64,000 bases of DNA from Dehalococcoidia bacterium (lineage in GTDB: Bacteria; Chloroflexota; Dehalococcoidia; Bin125). Numbering within the stretch: position 1 is the stretch's first letter; each line of letters begins with the position of its first letter. A program made the translations under genes and the position numbers. The notes under the pieces are model-generated. The model was given only the letters and a program-made list of their open reading frames with translations. It was not told the DNA's origin and did not search any database. Positions 23,174-30,751 of the stretch are shown here, in pieces. The DNA lies in the NCBI GenBank assembly GCA_022828105.1, contig JAJEJC010000007.1:268885-332884 (forward strand), written 5' to 3'.

Positions 23174-23899
23174 CTACGGCGACAGTGAATACTCGCGCTC
23201 CAGCGCGGAGCGATTGACGATCGTCACTCGTTGCCGGTTGACGTCGACGATCCGTTGCTTGCGCCACTGTTGCAGTTGCTTGTTCACGGCGACGCGCGAC
23301 GCGCCGATCATGTTCGCGAGTTCTTGCTGCGAGACCCGGAGGCCGATGTCGACGCCGTCTTCGGTGGCTTCGCCGTGTTCATTGGCGATGGCCAGGAGTC
23401 GTCGGGCCAGGCGGCCCGGCACGTCGAGCAGGTAGGCGTCCTGGATCGACTGGTTGGTCGCGCGCAGTCGCGCGACGAGCACATCGATGATCGCCCGTTG
23501 GGCTTCCGGGTGCCGATCCAGGACGGCGAGAAAGTCGTGCCGGCTGAGACTGACTGCCTCGGTGTTCTCGATCGTGGTCGCCGAGGCCGAACGAGGCTCA
23601 TCGTCGAGCAACGACATCTCGCCCAGGAGGTCGTACTTGCGGTGCACGGCCAGCACCACTTCGCGTCCATCCAGTGAGGGAATGAAAATCTTCACGGCGC
23701 CCTTGAGAATGATGTAGAGCGTTGCGCCCTCATCACCCTCGTGGAAGATGTCGGTGTGCGCCCGGTACTGAACCGGCCTGAGCTTCTGCGCGAGTTCGAG
23801 CAGCATGCGGCGCGGCATGTTGCGGAACAAGACCACGTTCGTCAACAGGTCCAACGCTTCGTCGGTCCTATCGCTCGCAGACGATCGTCGGGTAGTCAT
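23174..23899 (-). CDS. Crp/Fnr-family transcriptional regulator
   Basis: A 241-residue DNA-binding regulator with a cyclic-nucleotide-binding-type sensor domain (about 20-135; GDEGATLYIILKGAVKIF and GEMSLLDDEPRSASATT) and a winged HTH (190-212; SQQELANMIGASRVAVNKQLQQW). The sensor's phosphate-binding cassette reads GEMSLLDDEPRSAS, close to the CRP motif, so it may bind cAMP or a related nucleotide. No Cys cluster for an iron-sulfur centre is seen. A TAGACT box (minus strand, 23917-23922) and a GGAGA ribosome site precede the ATG. Confidence 0.93.
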   Translation of the reverse strand: MTTRRSSASDRTDEALDLLTNVVLFRNMPRRMLLELAQKLRPVQYRAHTDIFHEGDEGATLYIILKGAVKIFIPSLDGREVVLAVHRKYDLLGEMSLLDDEPRSASATTIENTEAVSLSRHDFLAVLDRHPEAQRAIIDVLVARLRATNQSIQDAYLLDVPGRLARRLLAIANEHGEATEDGVDIGLRVSQQELANMIGASRVAVNKQLQQWRKQRIVDVNRQRVTIVNRSALEREYSLSP

Positions 23900-25150: not shown

Positions 25151-25619
25151 ACGGCGAGAGCAGCCGACGACGCTGGAGGAAGCGAACCTGCCGCTCGATC
25201 ACGGGGCCAGGCTGTTCGCCATCGCCGACGGTTTGTGCCGCATCGGCCAGCTTCGCACCGGATCCCGAGCGGGTCAGTTCTCGATCTTCAACTTCCTGAT
25301 CCGCTGCGCGCCCGACGAGGAGTATCCGTCGCCCGACGATCGCGTGACGCACGTCGTCCTGATGCAGGCCGGCGTCGTCCGCCGCCACGGGTGGTACGCG
25401 CACTTCTGGTTGCCGCAGGACGATCGGCCCATGCGCATCGCGCTGCCGGCGCCGATCGGCAAGTCGTGGCACTGGCACGACGACATCGCCGAGATCAGCC
25501 GCCGCTTCGCGGACTCGGAGGGTTGGACCCAGGCCGTCGGTATGAGCGTGGACGACTACGTGGCGCAGTTTGCCGAAGCGCTGGCGAGTGCGGAAGTCGT
25601 CAGATCAGCGAAGGCGTAG
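25128..25619 (+). CDS. hypothetical protein coupled to enoyl-CoA hydratase
   Basis: A 163-residue soluble protein of unknown family. It starts within the last 23 bases of the enoyl-CoA hydratase gene, so it is probably translated by coupling. It is rich in Trp and His in the middle (VRRHGWYAHFWLPQDD, then GKSWHWHDD). The C-terminal 40 residues look helical. There is no signal peptide or membrane helix. Its end overlaps the convergent CoA-transferase gene by 20 bases. The context suggests a role with acyl-CoA enzymes, but nothing in the sequence names it. Confidence 0.6.
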   Translation: MTSTDRDERREQPTTLEEANLPLDHGARLFAIADGLCRIGQLRTGSRAGQFSIFNFLIRCAPDEEYPSPDDRVTHVVLMQAGVVRRHGWYAHFWLPQDDRPMRIALPAPIGKSWHWHDDIAEISRRFADSEGWTQAVGMSVDDYVAQFAEALASAEVVRSAKA

Positions 25620-26886
25620 CCGGCATCTCGGAAGCCGGAGGCACGCCTTCCGGCCGGGTGGCGACGACTCCCGCGGCTTCCAGGGCTGCCTGTTCCGCCT
25701 GCGGAATGCCGAGCAGCCCGCCCAGGATGTCTGCGTTGTGCTGTCCGAAGTCCGGCGCCGGACCAACAATGCAGGGCTGCCCGCCCTCGGTTCGCCATAG
25801 CCAACCGTGCGCCACCCAGATACCGACTTCTGGGTGGCGAATCGGCTCGTAGAAGCCGCGCGCCTGCAGGTGCGGGTCACGCAGCACTTCGAGCATCTTC
25901 CAGACGGGAGATGAAGGAACGCGCTCGGCGTGAAGCGCCGCGAAGGCGTCGGTCTTCGCGCGTCCCCGGGTCCAGGCGGCGACCAGCTCATCGAGCTCGG
26001 CGCGATGCTCCCAGCGCAGGATCTGGTCCGAGAATTCGGCCCGCTCGGTCCAGTGCGGCGCGCCCATCGCCCGCTTTAGTCCTTCCCACTCTACGTCGGT
26101 GCGCACGCAGATCGCGATCCAGTCGTCGTCGCCTGCGCATGGATAGACGTTGTGCGGCGACATCCAGTCGTGACCGGTACCCATGTGCTCGGGCAGGCGG
26201 CGATTCATCGACCAATCCATGTAGAACTCGCCCAGCAGCGTGGACATCACCTCGCGCTGGGCGAGATCGATGTACTGCCCTTTGCCGGTCCGCTTGCGCT
26301 GAATCAACGCCGTCGCGACGGCCGCCGCGGCGCAGATGCCCGCAATCGGGTCGCCGTACGAGATGCCGCTCTTGTAGGGCACGCCGTCGTCGCCGTAGCC
26401 GGACGTCGAGGTCATGCCGCTCATCATTTCGATGATCGGCCCGTAGCCGACCGCGTCCTTCTCCGGACCGGTCTTGCCGAAGCCGGCCATGCCGACCACG
26501 ATGATGTCCTCTCTCTGCTCGCACAGCCACTCGTAGGACAGGCCGAGGTTGTCCATCACGTCGGTGCGGTAGTTCTCCATCACCACGTCGCAATGAGCCA
26601 GCAGTCTCGCGAAGACGGCCTTGCCCTCGTCGGAGGCCAGGTCGAGCGAGAGCGACTTCTTGTTGCGGCTGTACTCGTGGAAGTAGAAGTTGGTGTTCCA
26701 CCAGTGTTCGCCCGGCGCGACCGGCGGCGGGAGCAGCGTGCGGATGTTGTCCCAGGCGCGCGGCGATTCGATCTTGATCACCTCAGCGCCTTGGTCGGCG
26801 AGAATCTTCGCGCCGTAGGGACCAGCCCAGATCATCGTTAGGTCGGCGACGCGCACGCCGGTCAGGGGTCGGCCCGGATCAAACAT
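25600..26886 (-). CDS. CaiB/BaiF class III CoA-transferase, beta type
   Basis: A 428-residue family III CoA-transferase-like protein. It shares marks with the 29411 gene and the second half of the 814-residue protein: DLT..WAGP near the start (15-23), RNKKSLSLDL (74-83) and GPIIEMMSGMT..SGY..G.PYKSG. The residue in the place of the catalytic Asp is Glu212 (YIDLAQREVM). Its ATG overlaps the stop of the alpha-type gene by one base (TGATG), so the two products are probably made in equal amount and may form a hetero-oligomer. Substrate unknown. Confidence 0.92.
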   Translation of the reverse strand: MFDPGRPLTGVRVADLTMIWAGPYGAKILADQGAEVIKIESPRAWDNIRTLLPPPVAPGEHWWNTNFYFHEYSRNKKSLSLDLASDEGKAVFARLLAHCDVVMENYRTDVMDNLGLSYEWLCEQREDIIVVGMAGFGKTGPEKDAVGYGPIIEMMSGMTSTSGYGDDGVPYKSGISYGDPIAGICAAAAVATALIQRKRTGKGQYIDLAQREVMSTLLGEFYMDWSMNRRLPEHMGTGHDWMSPHNVYPCAGDDDWIAICVRTDVEWEGLKRAMGAPHWTERAEFSDQILRWEHRAELDELVAAWTRGRAKTDAFAALHAERVPSSPVWKMLEVLRDPHLQARGFYEPIRHPEVGIWVAHGWLWRTEGGQPCIVGPAPDFGQHNADILGGLLGIPQAEQAALEAAGVVATRPEGVPPASEMPATPSLI

Positions 26887-28109
26887 CAGATGGCGTCCAG
26901 TTCCCGCAGTCGGACCAGGTCCTCGCGCTCATAGCCCAGTTCACCGTGAATGATCTCCATGTTGTGCTCGCCCAGGCGGGGCGCGCGGCCCATCTTCCAG
27001 TCGTGCCCGCTGCTCAGCCAGAGCCGGCCGGGATACGTCAGCGAGCCGGTGTCTTCGTCATCCAGCGAGGCGAAAAAGTCGCGGCTCTGCAGGTGCTCCG
27101 AGTTGGTCAAGTCCTCGAACGTGGCGACGTAGCCGAACGGAACCCGGTGCTCGATGCCGAGCTCGAGCAGCCCCTGACGCGTCTGGGCGGCAAACCAGCC
27201 GTACATGATCGCCATCAGCTCGTCGTTGTTGAGCAGACGTTGGCCGGGGTCGGCAAACCGTTCATCCTGCAACTCGTCGAGTCCGACCGCGCGGGCGAAT
27301 GCCGGATAGTTGCGGGGCAGCGCGCAGATGCCGCCGTGGCCGTCGGCCACTTCGTACACGCCCCATAGCGCGTTGAGGTTGTTGCCCGAGCGCTGCGATT
27401 CGATGCCGAGCTGCGACGCTCGCGTGTGAAACGCCTCGGCCATGCCCGCGTATGTCTCTTGCACGGACAGGTCGATGTACGACCCTTGCCCGTGCATCAC
27501 CGCGCCGTAGTACGCGCCCGTGATCGCGGCGAGTGCATTCAGCCCTGCCTGGTAGGACGGCTGCGATCCACCGTTCTTCAGCGGGTGCCGCTCGGGATGT
27601 CCGGTCAGCCACATCTGTCCCGAGGCGGCGTAGAGCGTCAGCTCGGTCGCCGGCAGATTGGCGTTCGGACCGGTCTGGCCGAACGGCGTAATCGAGATCA
27701 TGACCAGGGCATCGTGATCCCTGGACAACTCGGCGTAGCTCAGCTCATGCGATTCCAGGAAACCGGGCTCAAACGACTCGATCACGATCTCGGCAGACTG
27801 GGCCAGTTCGCGCAGGATCTCGCGTCCGTCCGAGGTCTCGAGATTGAGCGTGATCGAGCGCTTGTCGCCATTCAGGTAGAGGAACAGGCCGCTGGTCTCG
27901 TCGTCCGGCAGGTCGTCGGGCCAGGGACCGAACGCGCGCGACGGATCGCCGGTGGTCCGCTCGACCTTGACCACATCGGCGCCCAGGGCGGCCAGCCAGC
28001 GGCCGGCGAACGGTCCTGAGATGCCTTCGGCGAGTTCGAGCACTCTGACGCCGTCAAAGGGGCGTCCGGCATCGTCGCCGTGGTCCCGGCCACTCGGTTG
28101 CTCGCTCAT
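26886..28109 (-). CDS. CaiB/BaiF class III CoA-transferase, alpha type
   Basis: A 407-residue family III CoA-transferase-like protein, first gene of a coupled pair. Alpha-type marks are LELAEGISGPFAGRWLA (24-40), YLNGDKRSITL and ASGQMWLTGHPERHP (162-176), the last closely matched in the N-terminal half of the 814-residue protein. The catalytic position holds Glu218 (YIDLSVQET). There is no ribosome site. A TAGACT box (28117-28122, minus strand) ends seven bases before the ATG, as in leaderless mRNAs. Substrate unknown. Confidence 0.92.
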   Translation of the reverse strand: MSEQPSGRDHGDDAGRPFDGVRVLELAEGISGPFAGRWLAALGADVVKVERTTGDPSRAFGPWPDDLPDDETSGLFLYLNGDKRSITLNLETSDGREILRELAQSAEIVIESFEPGFLESHELSYAELSRDHDALVMISITPFGQTGPNANLPATELTLYAASGQMWLTGHPERHPLKNGGSQPSYQAGLNALAAITGAYYGAVMHGQGSYIDLSVQETYAGMAEAFHTRASQLGIESQRSGNNLNALWGVYEVADGHGGICALPRNYPAFARAVGLDELQDERFADPGQRLLNNDELMAIMYGWFAAQTRQGLLELGIEHRVPFGYVATFEDLTNSEHLQSRDFFASLDDEDTGSLTYPGRLWLSSGHDWKMGRAPRLGEHNMEIIHGELGYEREDLVRLRELDAI

Positions 28110-28157
28110 CGCCCGCAGTCTATGAGCAGACCCGACTGCGTTCTAGACTGAGCGGGC
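28110..28157. promoter_or_regulatory. interleaved divergent promoters of the two CoA-transferase operons
   Basis: In 48 bases, two TAGACT boxes face away from each other: 28117-28122 on the minus strand and 28144-28149 on the plus strand. Each is followed within two bases by GCGGGC and then the start codon, with 7 and 8 bases between box and ATG. With normal spacing, the -35 region of each promoter falls on the -10 box of the other, so only one polymerase should bind at a time. Confidence 0.5.
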
Positions 28158-29414
28158 ATGATCACGCAATCCACTTCATCGACGGAATCCTCGGGACTGA
28201 CCGAAGCGACCGGGCCGCCGCTGCTTGACGCGGTCCGAGTCGTGGAGCTGGCGGAGGACATCGCCGGCCCCTTTGCCGCCAAGCTGCTGGCCGACGCGGG
28301 CGCGGAGACGATCAAGGTGGAATCGCCCGGCGGCGACGCCGCCCGGCGCGCGGCGCCCTTTGCCGAACCCGCGCCGCATCGGGAAACCTCTACTACCTGG
28401 CTGGCCTTCAACACCTCGAAACGAAGCGTCGTGCTGGACCTGCAAACGGCGGCCGGACGGCGGATGTTGCAGGCGTTGATTTCCAAGGCGGACGTGTTCG
28501 TGACCGACCGGACACCGTCACAACTGGACGCGCTCGACCTGAATCCGCACGATCTTCGAGAGCGGCTGCCGCAGTTGATCATCGCCGCCGTGACGCCGTT
28601 CGGATTGCTCGGCGAGGCCAGCGAGTGGCCGTCGACAGCGTTGACTCGTGCTCATGCCTCGGGCTCGGCCGCCGGCGTGCGCCGCAATCTGGGCGCGAGC
28701 GCGGCCGCTCCGCTGATGGCCGGAGCCAATGTGCACGAAGCCGACGGCGGCACCGCGCTCGCACTGGCCACGTGGGCGGCGCTGCTCGTCCGCGACCGCG
28801 ACGGCCACGGACAGATTGTTGATGTCTCCTCCGTTGAGGCGATGATGAACATGGACCGGGTCGACATCTCGATCGCGCACAACGACGGCGGACCGCCGCC
28901 GATGCCGCCGCGCAAGGGCGGCAGCGCCTTCGGCGGACGGCTCGAGTGCGCCGACGGCCACCTGATCGCGGTGACGCCGCAGGCGCATCAATGGGCGGGT
29001 CTGATCAAGGCGATGGACGATCCAGACTGGGCCTACGACGCCGACGGCCATCTGATAGACCGTCTGCAACTCGGCGACGAGGCGGCTGAAGCGATCGAGC
29101 AATGGGCCGGCGCCCGGACTCGCGACGAGGTCTTTCGCGCGCTGCAGGTCAATAGTGCGCCGGCAGGTCCGGTGCTGCGGCCTTCGGAGGTGATGAACTC
29201 CGAGCAGATGCAGGTGCGCGAATTCTTTGACGTATTGCCGCATTCGTTCACGGGCAGCGCGCGCTATCCGCAGTTCGCCGCCCGCTGGAACCGAGCCCGT
29301 CGCGCAACTCGCCGCGCTGCGCCGCTGCTGGGCTCCGACTCCGCGGACGCCATGCGCCCGCATCTCCATCCCTGGAAACCCGCGCAGGCTCGACGAGCAG
29401 GAGTGATTGGATGA
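28158..29414 (+). CDS. CaiB/BaiF class III CoA-transferase, alpha type
   Basis: A 418-residue family III CoA-transferase-like protein that opens the rightward pair. Alpha-type marks are VELAEDIAGPFAAKLLAD (29-46) and a FNTSKRSVVLDL segment (84-95). The catalytic position holds Glu227 (QIVDVSSVEA). This copy has diverged from the other alpha-type proteins in the middle (HASGSAAG). No ribosome site is seen, and a TAGACT box stands close to the ATG. It ends in ATGA overlapping the beta-type gene. The substrate is unknown. Confidence 0.92.
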   Translation: MITQSTSSTESSGLTEATGPPLLDAVRVVELAEDIAGPFAAKLLADAGAETIKVESPGGDAARRAAPFAEPAPHRETSTTWLAFNTSKRSVVLDLQTAAGRRMLQALISKADVFVTDRTPSQLDALDLNPHDLRERLPQLIIAAVTPFGLLGEASEWPSTALTRAHASGSAAGVRRNLGASAAAPLMAGANVHEADGGTALALATWAALLVRDRDGHGQIVDVSSVEAMMNMDRVDISIAHNDGGPPPMPPRKGGSAFGGRLECADGHLIAVTPQAHQWAGLIKAMDDPDWAYDADGHLIDRLQLGDEAAEAIEQWAGARTRDEVFRALQVNSAPAGPVLRPSEVMNSEQMQVREFFDVLPHSFTGSARYPQFAARWNRARRATRRAAPLLGSDSADAMRPHLHPWKPAQARRAGVIG

Positions 29415-30751
29415 CCACGACCACGAACGGACATCACTCTGCCGACGGCCACCTGCCGCATCATGTCGGTCACCACAGCCTGTTGCGTCCCGGTCCAAGG
29501 CGTGGCCCGCTCTCGGGCACGCGGATTATCGACTTCACCTGGGCCTGGGCCGGCCCTTACGGAGCGATGCAGGTCGCGCTGCTGGGCGCGGAGACGATCA
29601 AGGTCGAGTCGGCGACACGAATCGATCACTCCCGCCAGCGCTCGCTGGCGATGGGTTCGTTCAAGGGTGGGGTCAACCAGGCGCCGATGTTCAACGAGGT
29701 CAACCTCAACAAGTACTCGATCCAGCTCAATCTCAAGACCGAAGGCGCGAAGCAGATCATCCGCGACCTCGCTCGCACTGCCGACGGAGCGATCGACAAC
29801 TTCCGTCCGGGAACGCTGGACAAGCTTGGTCTGGGCTACGACGACTTGTGCCAGATCAATCCCGAGATCGTAATGGTCTCCGCCTCTGCCCTGGGCGCGA
29901 CGGGACCTGAGCGCAACTACACCGGTTACGCCCCGACCTTCGCTGCGCTCAGCGGACTGTCCTACCTGTCGGGGGAACCCGAGGAGCCGCCGGTGATGAT
30001 GGGCGGTTCGATCGACCTGCGCGCAGGCACCACCGCGGCGCTGGCGATGGTCGCCGGGTTGCACTACCGCGAGCGCACCGGCCGCGGCCAGTTCATTGAC
30101 GCATCCTCCTCGGAAGCGATCGGGATGCACATCCCCGAGGAGTTTCTGCACGTCGACCTGCTTGGCCGCGACGGTGATCGACTGGGCAACGGACACCGCG
30201 CTTATGCGCCGCACGATGTGTTCCGTTGCGCGTCGATGCGCGCTCCAGAGACCTATGGCGAGGATCACAAGGGTGCGAAGAGCGGCTGGCTGGCGATCGC
30301 CTGTCGATCGGATGGGGAATGGCAGGCGCTGTGCGAGTGCAGCGGGCTCGATCATCTTGCCGATGATCCGCGCTTCCGCACGGGACTCAAGCGATGGAAA
30401 CATCGCGATGAACTCAAACCGATGATCGAAGCCTGGACTTCGGAGCAGTCGGCGGTTGAGACGGCCGAGACGTTGCGCGCCGCCGGCGTGCCGGCTGCCG
30501 CCTCCGTCTGGGGCAGCGACATCCACCACTCGCAGAGCTTCCGCGATCGCGGCGGCGCGGTTGCCGTTCGTCCGCCCGAGACACATCTGCGCGAGGTCCT
30601 GCCGCCGCCCTGGAAGCTGTCCGAGACTCCCGCCGAAGTCGTCTCGCCCGCGCCCCGCCTGGGCGAAGATACGGATTACGTCCTGAGCCGGATGCTCGGC
30701 TATGGGCCGGAACGGATCGACGAACTCGCGCAGGAAGGCGCGCTGGAATAA
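29411..30751 (+). CDS. CaiB/BaiF class III CoA-transferase, beta type, with His-rich N-terminus
   Basis: A 446-residue family III CoA-transferase-like protein overlapping the alpha-type gene by four bases. Beta-type marks are DFTWAWAGPYGA (41-52) and FNEVNLNKYSIQLNL. The catalytic position holds Glu235 (FIDASSSEA). The first 30 residues carry seven histidines (HHSADGHLPHHVGHH), absent from its relatives, which could bind metal or be a disordered tail. It is probably the partner of the alpha-type protein encoded just upstream. Confidence 0.92.
   Translation: MTTTTNGHHSADGHLPHHVGHHSLLRPGPRRGPLSGTRIIDFTWAWAGPYGAMQVALLGAETIKVESATRIDHSRQRSLAMGSFKGGVNQAPMFNEVNLNKYSIQLNLKTEGAKQIIRDLARTADGAIDNFRPGTLDKLGLGYDDLCQINPEIVMVSASALGATGPERNYTGYAPTFAALSGLSYLSGEPEEPPVMMGGSIDLRAGTTAALAMVAGLHYRERTGRGQFIDASSSEAIGMHIPEEFLHVDLLGRDGDRLGNGHRAYAPHDVFRCASMRAPETYGEDHKGAKSGWLAIACRSDGEWQALCECSGLDHLADDPRFRTGLKRWKHRDELKPMIEAWTSEQSAVETAETLRAAGVPAAASVWGSDIHHSQSFRDRGGAVAVRPPETHLREVLPPPWKLSETPAEVVSPAPRLGEDTDYVLSRMLGYGPERIDELAQEGALE

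What the first reader, a model, noticed from the sequence alone, without database searches (positions are those of the whole stretch)
28107..28160. Interleaved back-to-back promoters with matching boxes
Two start codons facing apart are 48 bases from each other. Each has TAGACT 7-8 bases before it and a GCGGGC between box and start. The -35 region of each overlaps the -10 of the other, so the two operons should compete for polymerase. The shared elements suggest an inverted duplication of promoter plus alpha-beta pair.
Basis: partly seen in the sequence, partly recalled or inferred. Interest (0 to 1): 0.55.

Follow-up and report, generated by a model that had tools for sequence, protein, structure and literature searches.

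The report
Back-to-back near-leaderless promoters, genus-conserved
A 48-base gap between two oppositely directed enzyme operons in a sponge-associated Chloroflexota-type bacterium holds two promoters pointing apart, so close that two polymerases probably cannot sit there together, and its sequence is kept almost unchanged throughout the genus, but this is a tight example of a known arrangement rather than a new kind of thing.

Summary
Start codons facing apart at 28109 (-) and 28158 (+) leave 48 bases; TAGACT lies 7 and 8 bases before them. It is not chance: the block CAGTCTATGAGC-N8-CTnCGTTCTAGACT occurs once, with no mismatch and fixed 21-base box spacing, in 15 of 15 genomes of the genus, where only 5 of 241 fourfold-degenerate sites in the two flanking genes are invariant. 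The genome uses TANNNT boxes 6 bases before start codons (leaderless-type promoters), so both boxes are ordinary -10 elements of this lineage, here with a predicted 1- and 2-base leader. Footprints overlap, so competition between polymerases is a sound inference, not shown. No -35 consensus is present, and control promoters of the genus conserve none; '-35 overlaps -10' is geometry only. The shared GCGGGC is coincidence (both sides in 2 of 15 genomes). 'Inverted duplication of promoter plus pair' is not supported: the facing genes are about 31% identical, each family predates the genus, and a relative with the same divergent genes has different boxes 66 bases apart. A very old gene duplication is not excluded (AU p 0.33 and 0.53). 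Ordinary kind, well-conserved member.

The parts
26886..28109 (-). A1, class III CoA-transferase, A-type subunit (no Asp at the catalytic position); first gene of the minus operon
   Evidence: PF02515, 274.7 bits; A clade; no Asp in the aligned column; best solved match 9fn0_A
25600..26886 (-). B1, class III CoA-transferase, B-type subunit (Asp present), overlapping the end of A1
   Evidence: PF02515, 344.5 bits; B clade; Asp
28158..29414 (+). A2, class III CoA-transferase, A-type subunit; first gene of the plus operon
   Evidence: PF02515, 271.0 bits; A clade; no Asp in the aligned column
29411..30751 (+). B2, class III CoA-transferase, B-type subunit, overlapping the end of A2
   Evidence: PF02515, 300.4 bits; Asp; best solved match 9fn0_B
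28117..28122 (-). -10 box TAGACT of the minus promoter, 7 bases before ATG
   Evidence: invariant in 15 of 15 genomes
28144..28149 (+). -10 box TAGACT of the plus promoter, 8 bases before ATG
   Evidence: invariant in 15 of 15 genomes
28115..28149 (.). conserved divergent core GCAGTCTATGAGC-N8-CTnCGTTCTAGACT; 26 of 35 columns invariant, no insertion or deletion
28156..28156 (+). predicted transcription start of the plus operon (7th base after the box, G in 15 of 15 genomes), leaving a 2-base leader
   Evidence: inferred from the 6-base box-to-start spacing of leaderless-type genes
28110..28110 (-). predicted transcription start of the minus operon (7th base after the box, G in 15 of 15 genomes); 1-base leader before ATG in 13, first base of a GTG start in 2
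   Evidence: inferred

Best explanation
The gap is a pair of back-to-back, housekeeping-sigma, -10-driven promoters of the near-leaderless type, each firing one operon of a two-subunit (A plus B) class III CoA-transferase. Shown: the boxes, their genus-wide invariance and fixed spacing, and that TANNNT boxes 6-7 bases before start codons are a general signal in this genome. Inferred: that each box is a -10 element; that RNA starts at the invariant G seven bases downstream, giving mRNAs with 1- and 2-base leaders; and that, because a polymerase covers about 75 bases (recalled) while the two predicted starts are 47 apart, only one orientation can be occupied at a time, so the two operons compete for binding at the promoter. 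The bases kept just inside each box are best read as each promoter's own extended -10 region, and perhaps also as weak contacts for the opposite polymerase.
For: TANNNT exactly 6 bases before in-frame ATG/GTG: 36 of 932 candidate starts, 9 of 932 at 7 bases, mean 3.4 over the other 38 offsets tested (mean taken by hand). By gene, 50 of 368 with a box 5-8 bases before a start, against 8, 8, 9 and 16 in four other windows. TAGACT-N6-9-ATG: 28 places in the genome, 13 for the reversed pattern. Core block with 0 mismatches, one per genome, 15 of 15 genomes, absent from the 5 other genomes of the family. 26 of 35 columns invariant against 5 of 241 fourfold sites. The 7th base after each box is G in 15 of 15. 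Control promoters of the same genus also keep the -10 box and a few bases inside it. PMC3160421 (passages read) reads TANNNT about 12 bases before starts as promoters of leaderless genes, Chloroflexi included.
Against: No transcript data. A box 8 bases before the start (plus side) is at background in the genome-wide histogram (4 of 932), so the plus box alone would not have been called. No -35 consensus on either side. Conservation of 26 of 35 columns exceeds that of the controls, which could mean a further bound protein.
Confidence: 0.75

Rival explanations
1. The 35-base core is an operator: a transcription factor binds the inverted TAGACT repeats and controls both operons, and its site, not the promoters alone, explains the conservation.
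For: CAGTCTA/TAGACTG arms are inverted; conservation is longer than in the control promoters; a CRP-like regulator is encoded at 23174-23899 on the minus strand.
Against: Only one copy per genome at up to 3 mismatches, so no regulon. Outside the hexamers the two sides differ (TGAGC against GAACG) although each is invariant. The inner GCAG/CTGC symmetry is broken in 5 of 15 genomes by my reading of the sequences listed. Hexamers of this type stand 6-7 bases before starts elsewhere in the genome, mostly without a partner.
Confidence: 0.15
2. One reading: an inverted duplication copied promoter and gene pair, and the matching boxes are its remains.
For: Both operons are A then B. AU tests do not reject A1+A2 (p 0.326) or B1+B2 (p 0.528, tree with them together 0.97 log units better) as sister pairs.
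Against: A1 and A2 are about 31% identical and not each other's best paralogue; 46 of the 70 domains compared are of the A or B type and 19 of 22 A genes have a B next door, so A-B pairs are common. The A1 and A2 families each include other genera of the bacterial family. In G019 the genes are divergent but the boxes are TAGACT and TAGAAC, 66 bases apart, so the matching boxes are not older than the genus as far as sampled. GCGGGC on both sides in 2 of 15.
Confidence: 0.07
3. The boxes are a coincidence of composition or coding constraint, and transcription starts elsewhere, for instance inside the facing genes.
For: No sigma-70 consensus promoter was found by the scan.
Against: Invariance in 15 of 15 genomes where synonymous sites are nearly saturated; the signal position is close to the genome-wide one.
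Confidence: 0.03

Closest known systems
Leaderless-gene promoters of bacteria (TANNNT about 12 bases before the start codon; PMC3160421, passages read)
   Same: TANNNT hexamer 6-8 bases before the start codon, no room for a Shine-Dalgarno site, enriched genome-wide
   Different: Here 1-2 bases are predicted to precede the start codon; transcripts not measured
Bidirectional promoters of Escherichia coli with a shared, pseudo-symmetrical -10 element (PMC12825309, passages read)
   Same: Two polymerase orientations whose binding should exclude each other; mRNAs in both directions
   Different: Two separate -10 hexamers 21 bases apart, none shared; that paper does not count separate divergent promoters as bidirectional
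Overlapping back-to-back divergent promoters of bacteria in general (recalled, no call)
   Same: Divergent operons with overlapping core promoters and inferred mutual exclusion
   Different: Near-leaderless start on both sides and an almost unchanged sequence across a genus
Benzylsuccinate CoA-transferase, a two-subunit class III CoA-transferase (PDB 9fn0)
   Same: A1 best matches chain A, B2 best matches chain B
   Different: Substrates unknown; A2 matches another CoA-transferase (5yiy) slightly better than 9fn0_A

Membership tests
Leaderless-type bacterial promoter | TANNNT ending about 6 bases before the start codon | tested here: met
   TAGACT at 7 and 8 bases; genome-wide peak at 6-7. The plus side sits at the edge: 8 bases is background genome-wide
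Leaderless-type bacterial promoter | transcript begins at or within a few bases of the start codon | not testable with these tools
   no RNA data; predicted start is an invariant G in 15 of 15
Shared-element bidirectional promoter | one -10 element used in both directions | tested here: not met
   two hexamers 21 bases apart
Overlapping divergent promoters | two opposite core promoters within one polymerase footprint | tested here: met
   boxes 21 bases apart, predicted starts 47 apart; footprint size recalled
Overlapping divergent promoters | mutual exclusion of polymerases | not testable with these tools
   needs footprinting or reporter assays
Classical sigma-70 promoter with -35 | TTGACA-like hexamer 16-18 bases upstream of -10 | tested here: not met
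   best 3 of 6 on either side; none found by scan
Inverted duplication of promoter plus gene pair | A1 with A2 and B1 with B2 as sister pairs | tested here: inconclusive
   not recovered in the tree, not rejected by AU tests
Class III (family III) CoA-transferase | CoA_transf_3 domain | tested here: met
   all four proteins over the Pfam cut-off

The most novel reading that the evidence does not exclude
The core is a regulator-free polymerase-orientation switch: two near-leaderless promoters whose bases serve in both directions (each -10 region doubling as the upstream contact of the other), kept at fixed spacing by selection so that the cell makes one CoA-transferase or the other, not both at full rate.
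Probability: 0.15. Interest if true: 0.5.

Novelty: new member of a known kind. Interest (0 to 1): 0.3.

Why it matters
It shows that leaderless-type -10 promoters are in regular use in an uncultured, sponge-associated Chloroflexota-type genus, and offers one compact, genus-wide invariant piece of DNA on which exclusion between divergent leaderless-type promoters could be measured. If exclusion is real, it links the dosage of two paralogous CoA-transferases in a lineage known for its expansion of that family (PMC5395668 and PMC6306507, passages read).

Tried and rejected
Sigma-70 promoter and terminator scan: nothing. Search for a -35 motif in 45 leaderless-type promoters of the genome: no clear position stands out; TTGACA matches of 4 or more of 6 are 2-6 of 45 at every offset. 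Other copies of the plus half-block GCGTTCTAGACT: one exact place, and the reversed control is commoner at up to 2 mismatches, so no regulon. Symmetrical operator: arms differ outside the hexamers. Within 464 kb sampled, 48 divergent pairs under 300 bases apart were found; 4 had a box on both sides, but 3 of those have overlapping (negative) box distances and look spurious; other plausible divergent box pairs came from L106 (spacing 23) and L083 (50).

Rows dropped: in the control comparison control A used 13 of 15 loci (L143 at a contig end, L154 not matched by my pattern), control B 13 of 16 for the plus box (L166, L169, L170 incomplete) and 10 of those 13 for its divergent partner, picked by a motif and so biased towards conservation; of control C I printed 12 of 16 loci (the rest are paralogues or partial). 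The paralogue tree used 70 of 81 domains (11 covered too little of the profile). The 9 tree rows of A2 and 6 of A1 were chosen by hand from 19 and 16.

The binomial figures at the end were computed for 26 of 34 columns; the right counts are 25 of 34 or 26 of 35, and columns are not independent, so I do not use them. Papers: only search listings and found passages were read; no supplement. No paper describing this gap was seen in searches, none of which named the locus.

Full report
Observation. The gap reads as described: minus ATG ends at 28109, plus ATG starts at 28158, 48 bases between, TAGACT 7 and 8 bases before the starts and GCGGGC between. All four flanking genes are class III CoA-transferases, two per strand, the second gene of each pair overlapping the first.

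What the boxes are. In 464 kb of the genome (window plus 20 stretches) a simple gene caller gave 368 genes; TANNNT lies exactly 6 bases before 36 of 932 in-frame candidate starts and 7 bases before 9, against a mean of 3.4 at 38 other offsets. By gene, 50 of 368 have a box at 5-8 bases, against 8-16 in four other windows. TAGACT is one of the commoner hexamers in this set, 4 of 45. PMC3160421 (passages) takes such boxes as promoters of leaderless genes and lists Chloroflexi among the groups that have them. The two boxes of the finding are therefore ordinary -10 elements for this lineage, and their likeness needs no common origin.

Conservation. The genus has 15 held genomes including this one. 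All 15 carry the block once, without mismatch, with the boxes 21 bases apart; 26 of 35 columns from 28115 to 28149 are invariant, whereas 4 of 137 and 1 of 104 fourfold-degenerate sites in the flanking genes are. The 5 other genomes of the family lack the block. Named relatives are Chloroflexi or Dehalococcoidia assemblies by their record titles; that they come from sponges is my reading of the isolate names, not stated there.

Start sites. The seventh base after each box is G in 15 of 15. In leaderless-type genes of this genome that place is the first base of the start codon. Here it gives a 1-base leader before ATG on the minus side in 13 genomes; in the other 2 the same G opens a GTG start. 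On the plus side it gives a 2-base leader in all 15. This is a prediction; a box 8 bases from the start is not enriched genome-wide.

Controls. Three other promoter regions were followed through the genus. They keep the -10 box, in most cases a few bases inside it, and the 6-base distance to ATG, and no -35. Control A, also divergent, has boxes 23 or 24 bases apart in 12 of 13 rows and 40 in one. The finding's gap is stricter: no length change in 15, and longer conserved stretches inside the boxes. Whether that extra conservation serves the opposite polymerase, the own extended -10, or a regulator cannot be told from sequence.

Mechanism. With predicted starts 47 bases apart and a polymerase footprint of about 75 bases (recalled), the two polymerases should exclude each other. 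PMC12825309 (passages) reports such exclusion for bidirectional promoters with a shared -10, and says that at basal activity the competition is small; this gap has two separate -10 boxes and is not of that class.

Duplication. In a tree of 70 full-length CoA-transferase domains of this genome, A1 and A2 fall in one clade of 22 (99/98) and B1 and B2 in another of 24 (100/100), but neither pair is recovered as sisters. A1 and A2 are about 31% identical and have other best paralogues. AU tests do not reject either pair as sisters (p 0.326 and 0.528), so an old duplication stays open. It does not explain the boxes: the A1 and A2 families each extend to other genera, and G019, with the genes divergent, has TAGACT and TAGAAC 66 bases apart. 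GCGGGC is on both sides in 2 of 15 genomes.

Verdict. True observation, strong conservation, ordinary kind. Interest 0.3.

Noticed in passing
window 25600-30751 and 70 CoA-transferase domains of G000 (L001-L030, L107-L124): The A-type subunits lack the Asp at the catalytic position (0 of 22) while all B-types have it (24 of 24); 19 of 22 A genes have a B next door on the same strand. About a third of the genome's full-length class III CoA-transferase domains thus look like non-catalytic partners, as in a two-subunit benzylsuccinate-type enzyme. That this column is the catalytic one is recalled from formyl-CoA transferase.
   Followed up: partly
for example G000:C4:14651-16912, C9:235521-237896, C9:381625-384060: Several neighbouring pairs of CoA-transferase domains lie in one open frame of 800-890 codons, so some A-B pairs look fused into single proteins.
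   Followed up: no
window 23174-23899, minus strand: A CRP-like regulator (cNMP-binding plus Crp-type helix-turn-helix) lies a few genes from the divergent operons.
   Followed up: no
L106 1501-1553: A second divergent gap with leaderless-type boxes 23 bases apart, between a biotin carboxylase-like gene and an unnamed gene (names by my reading of the translations), conserved in the genus with spacing 23 or 24 in 12 of 13 rows and 40 in one.
   Followed up: partly
L194-L205, upstream of a transporter-like gene: The six bases between the -10 box and ATG (GTTCGC) are identical in the 12 loci printed, although the DNA further upstream differs widely.
   Followed up: no
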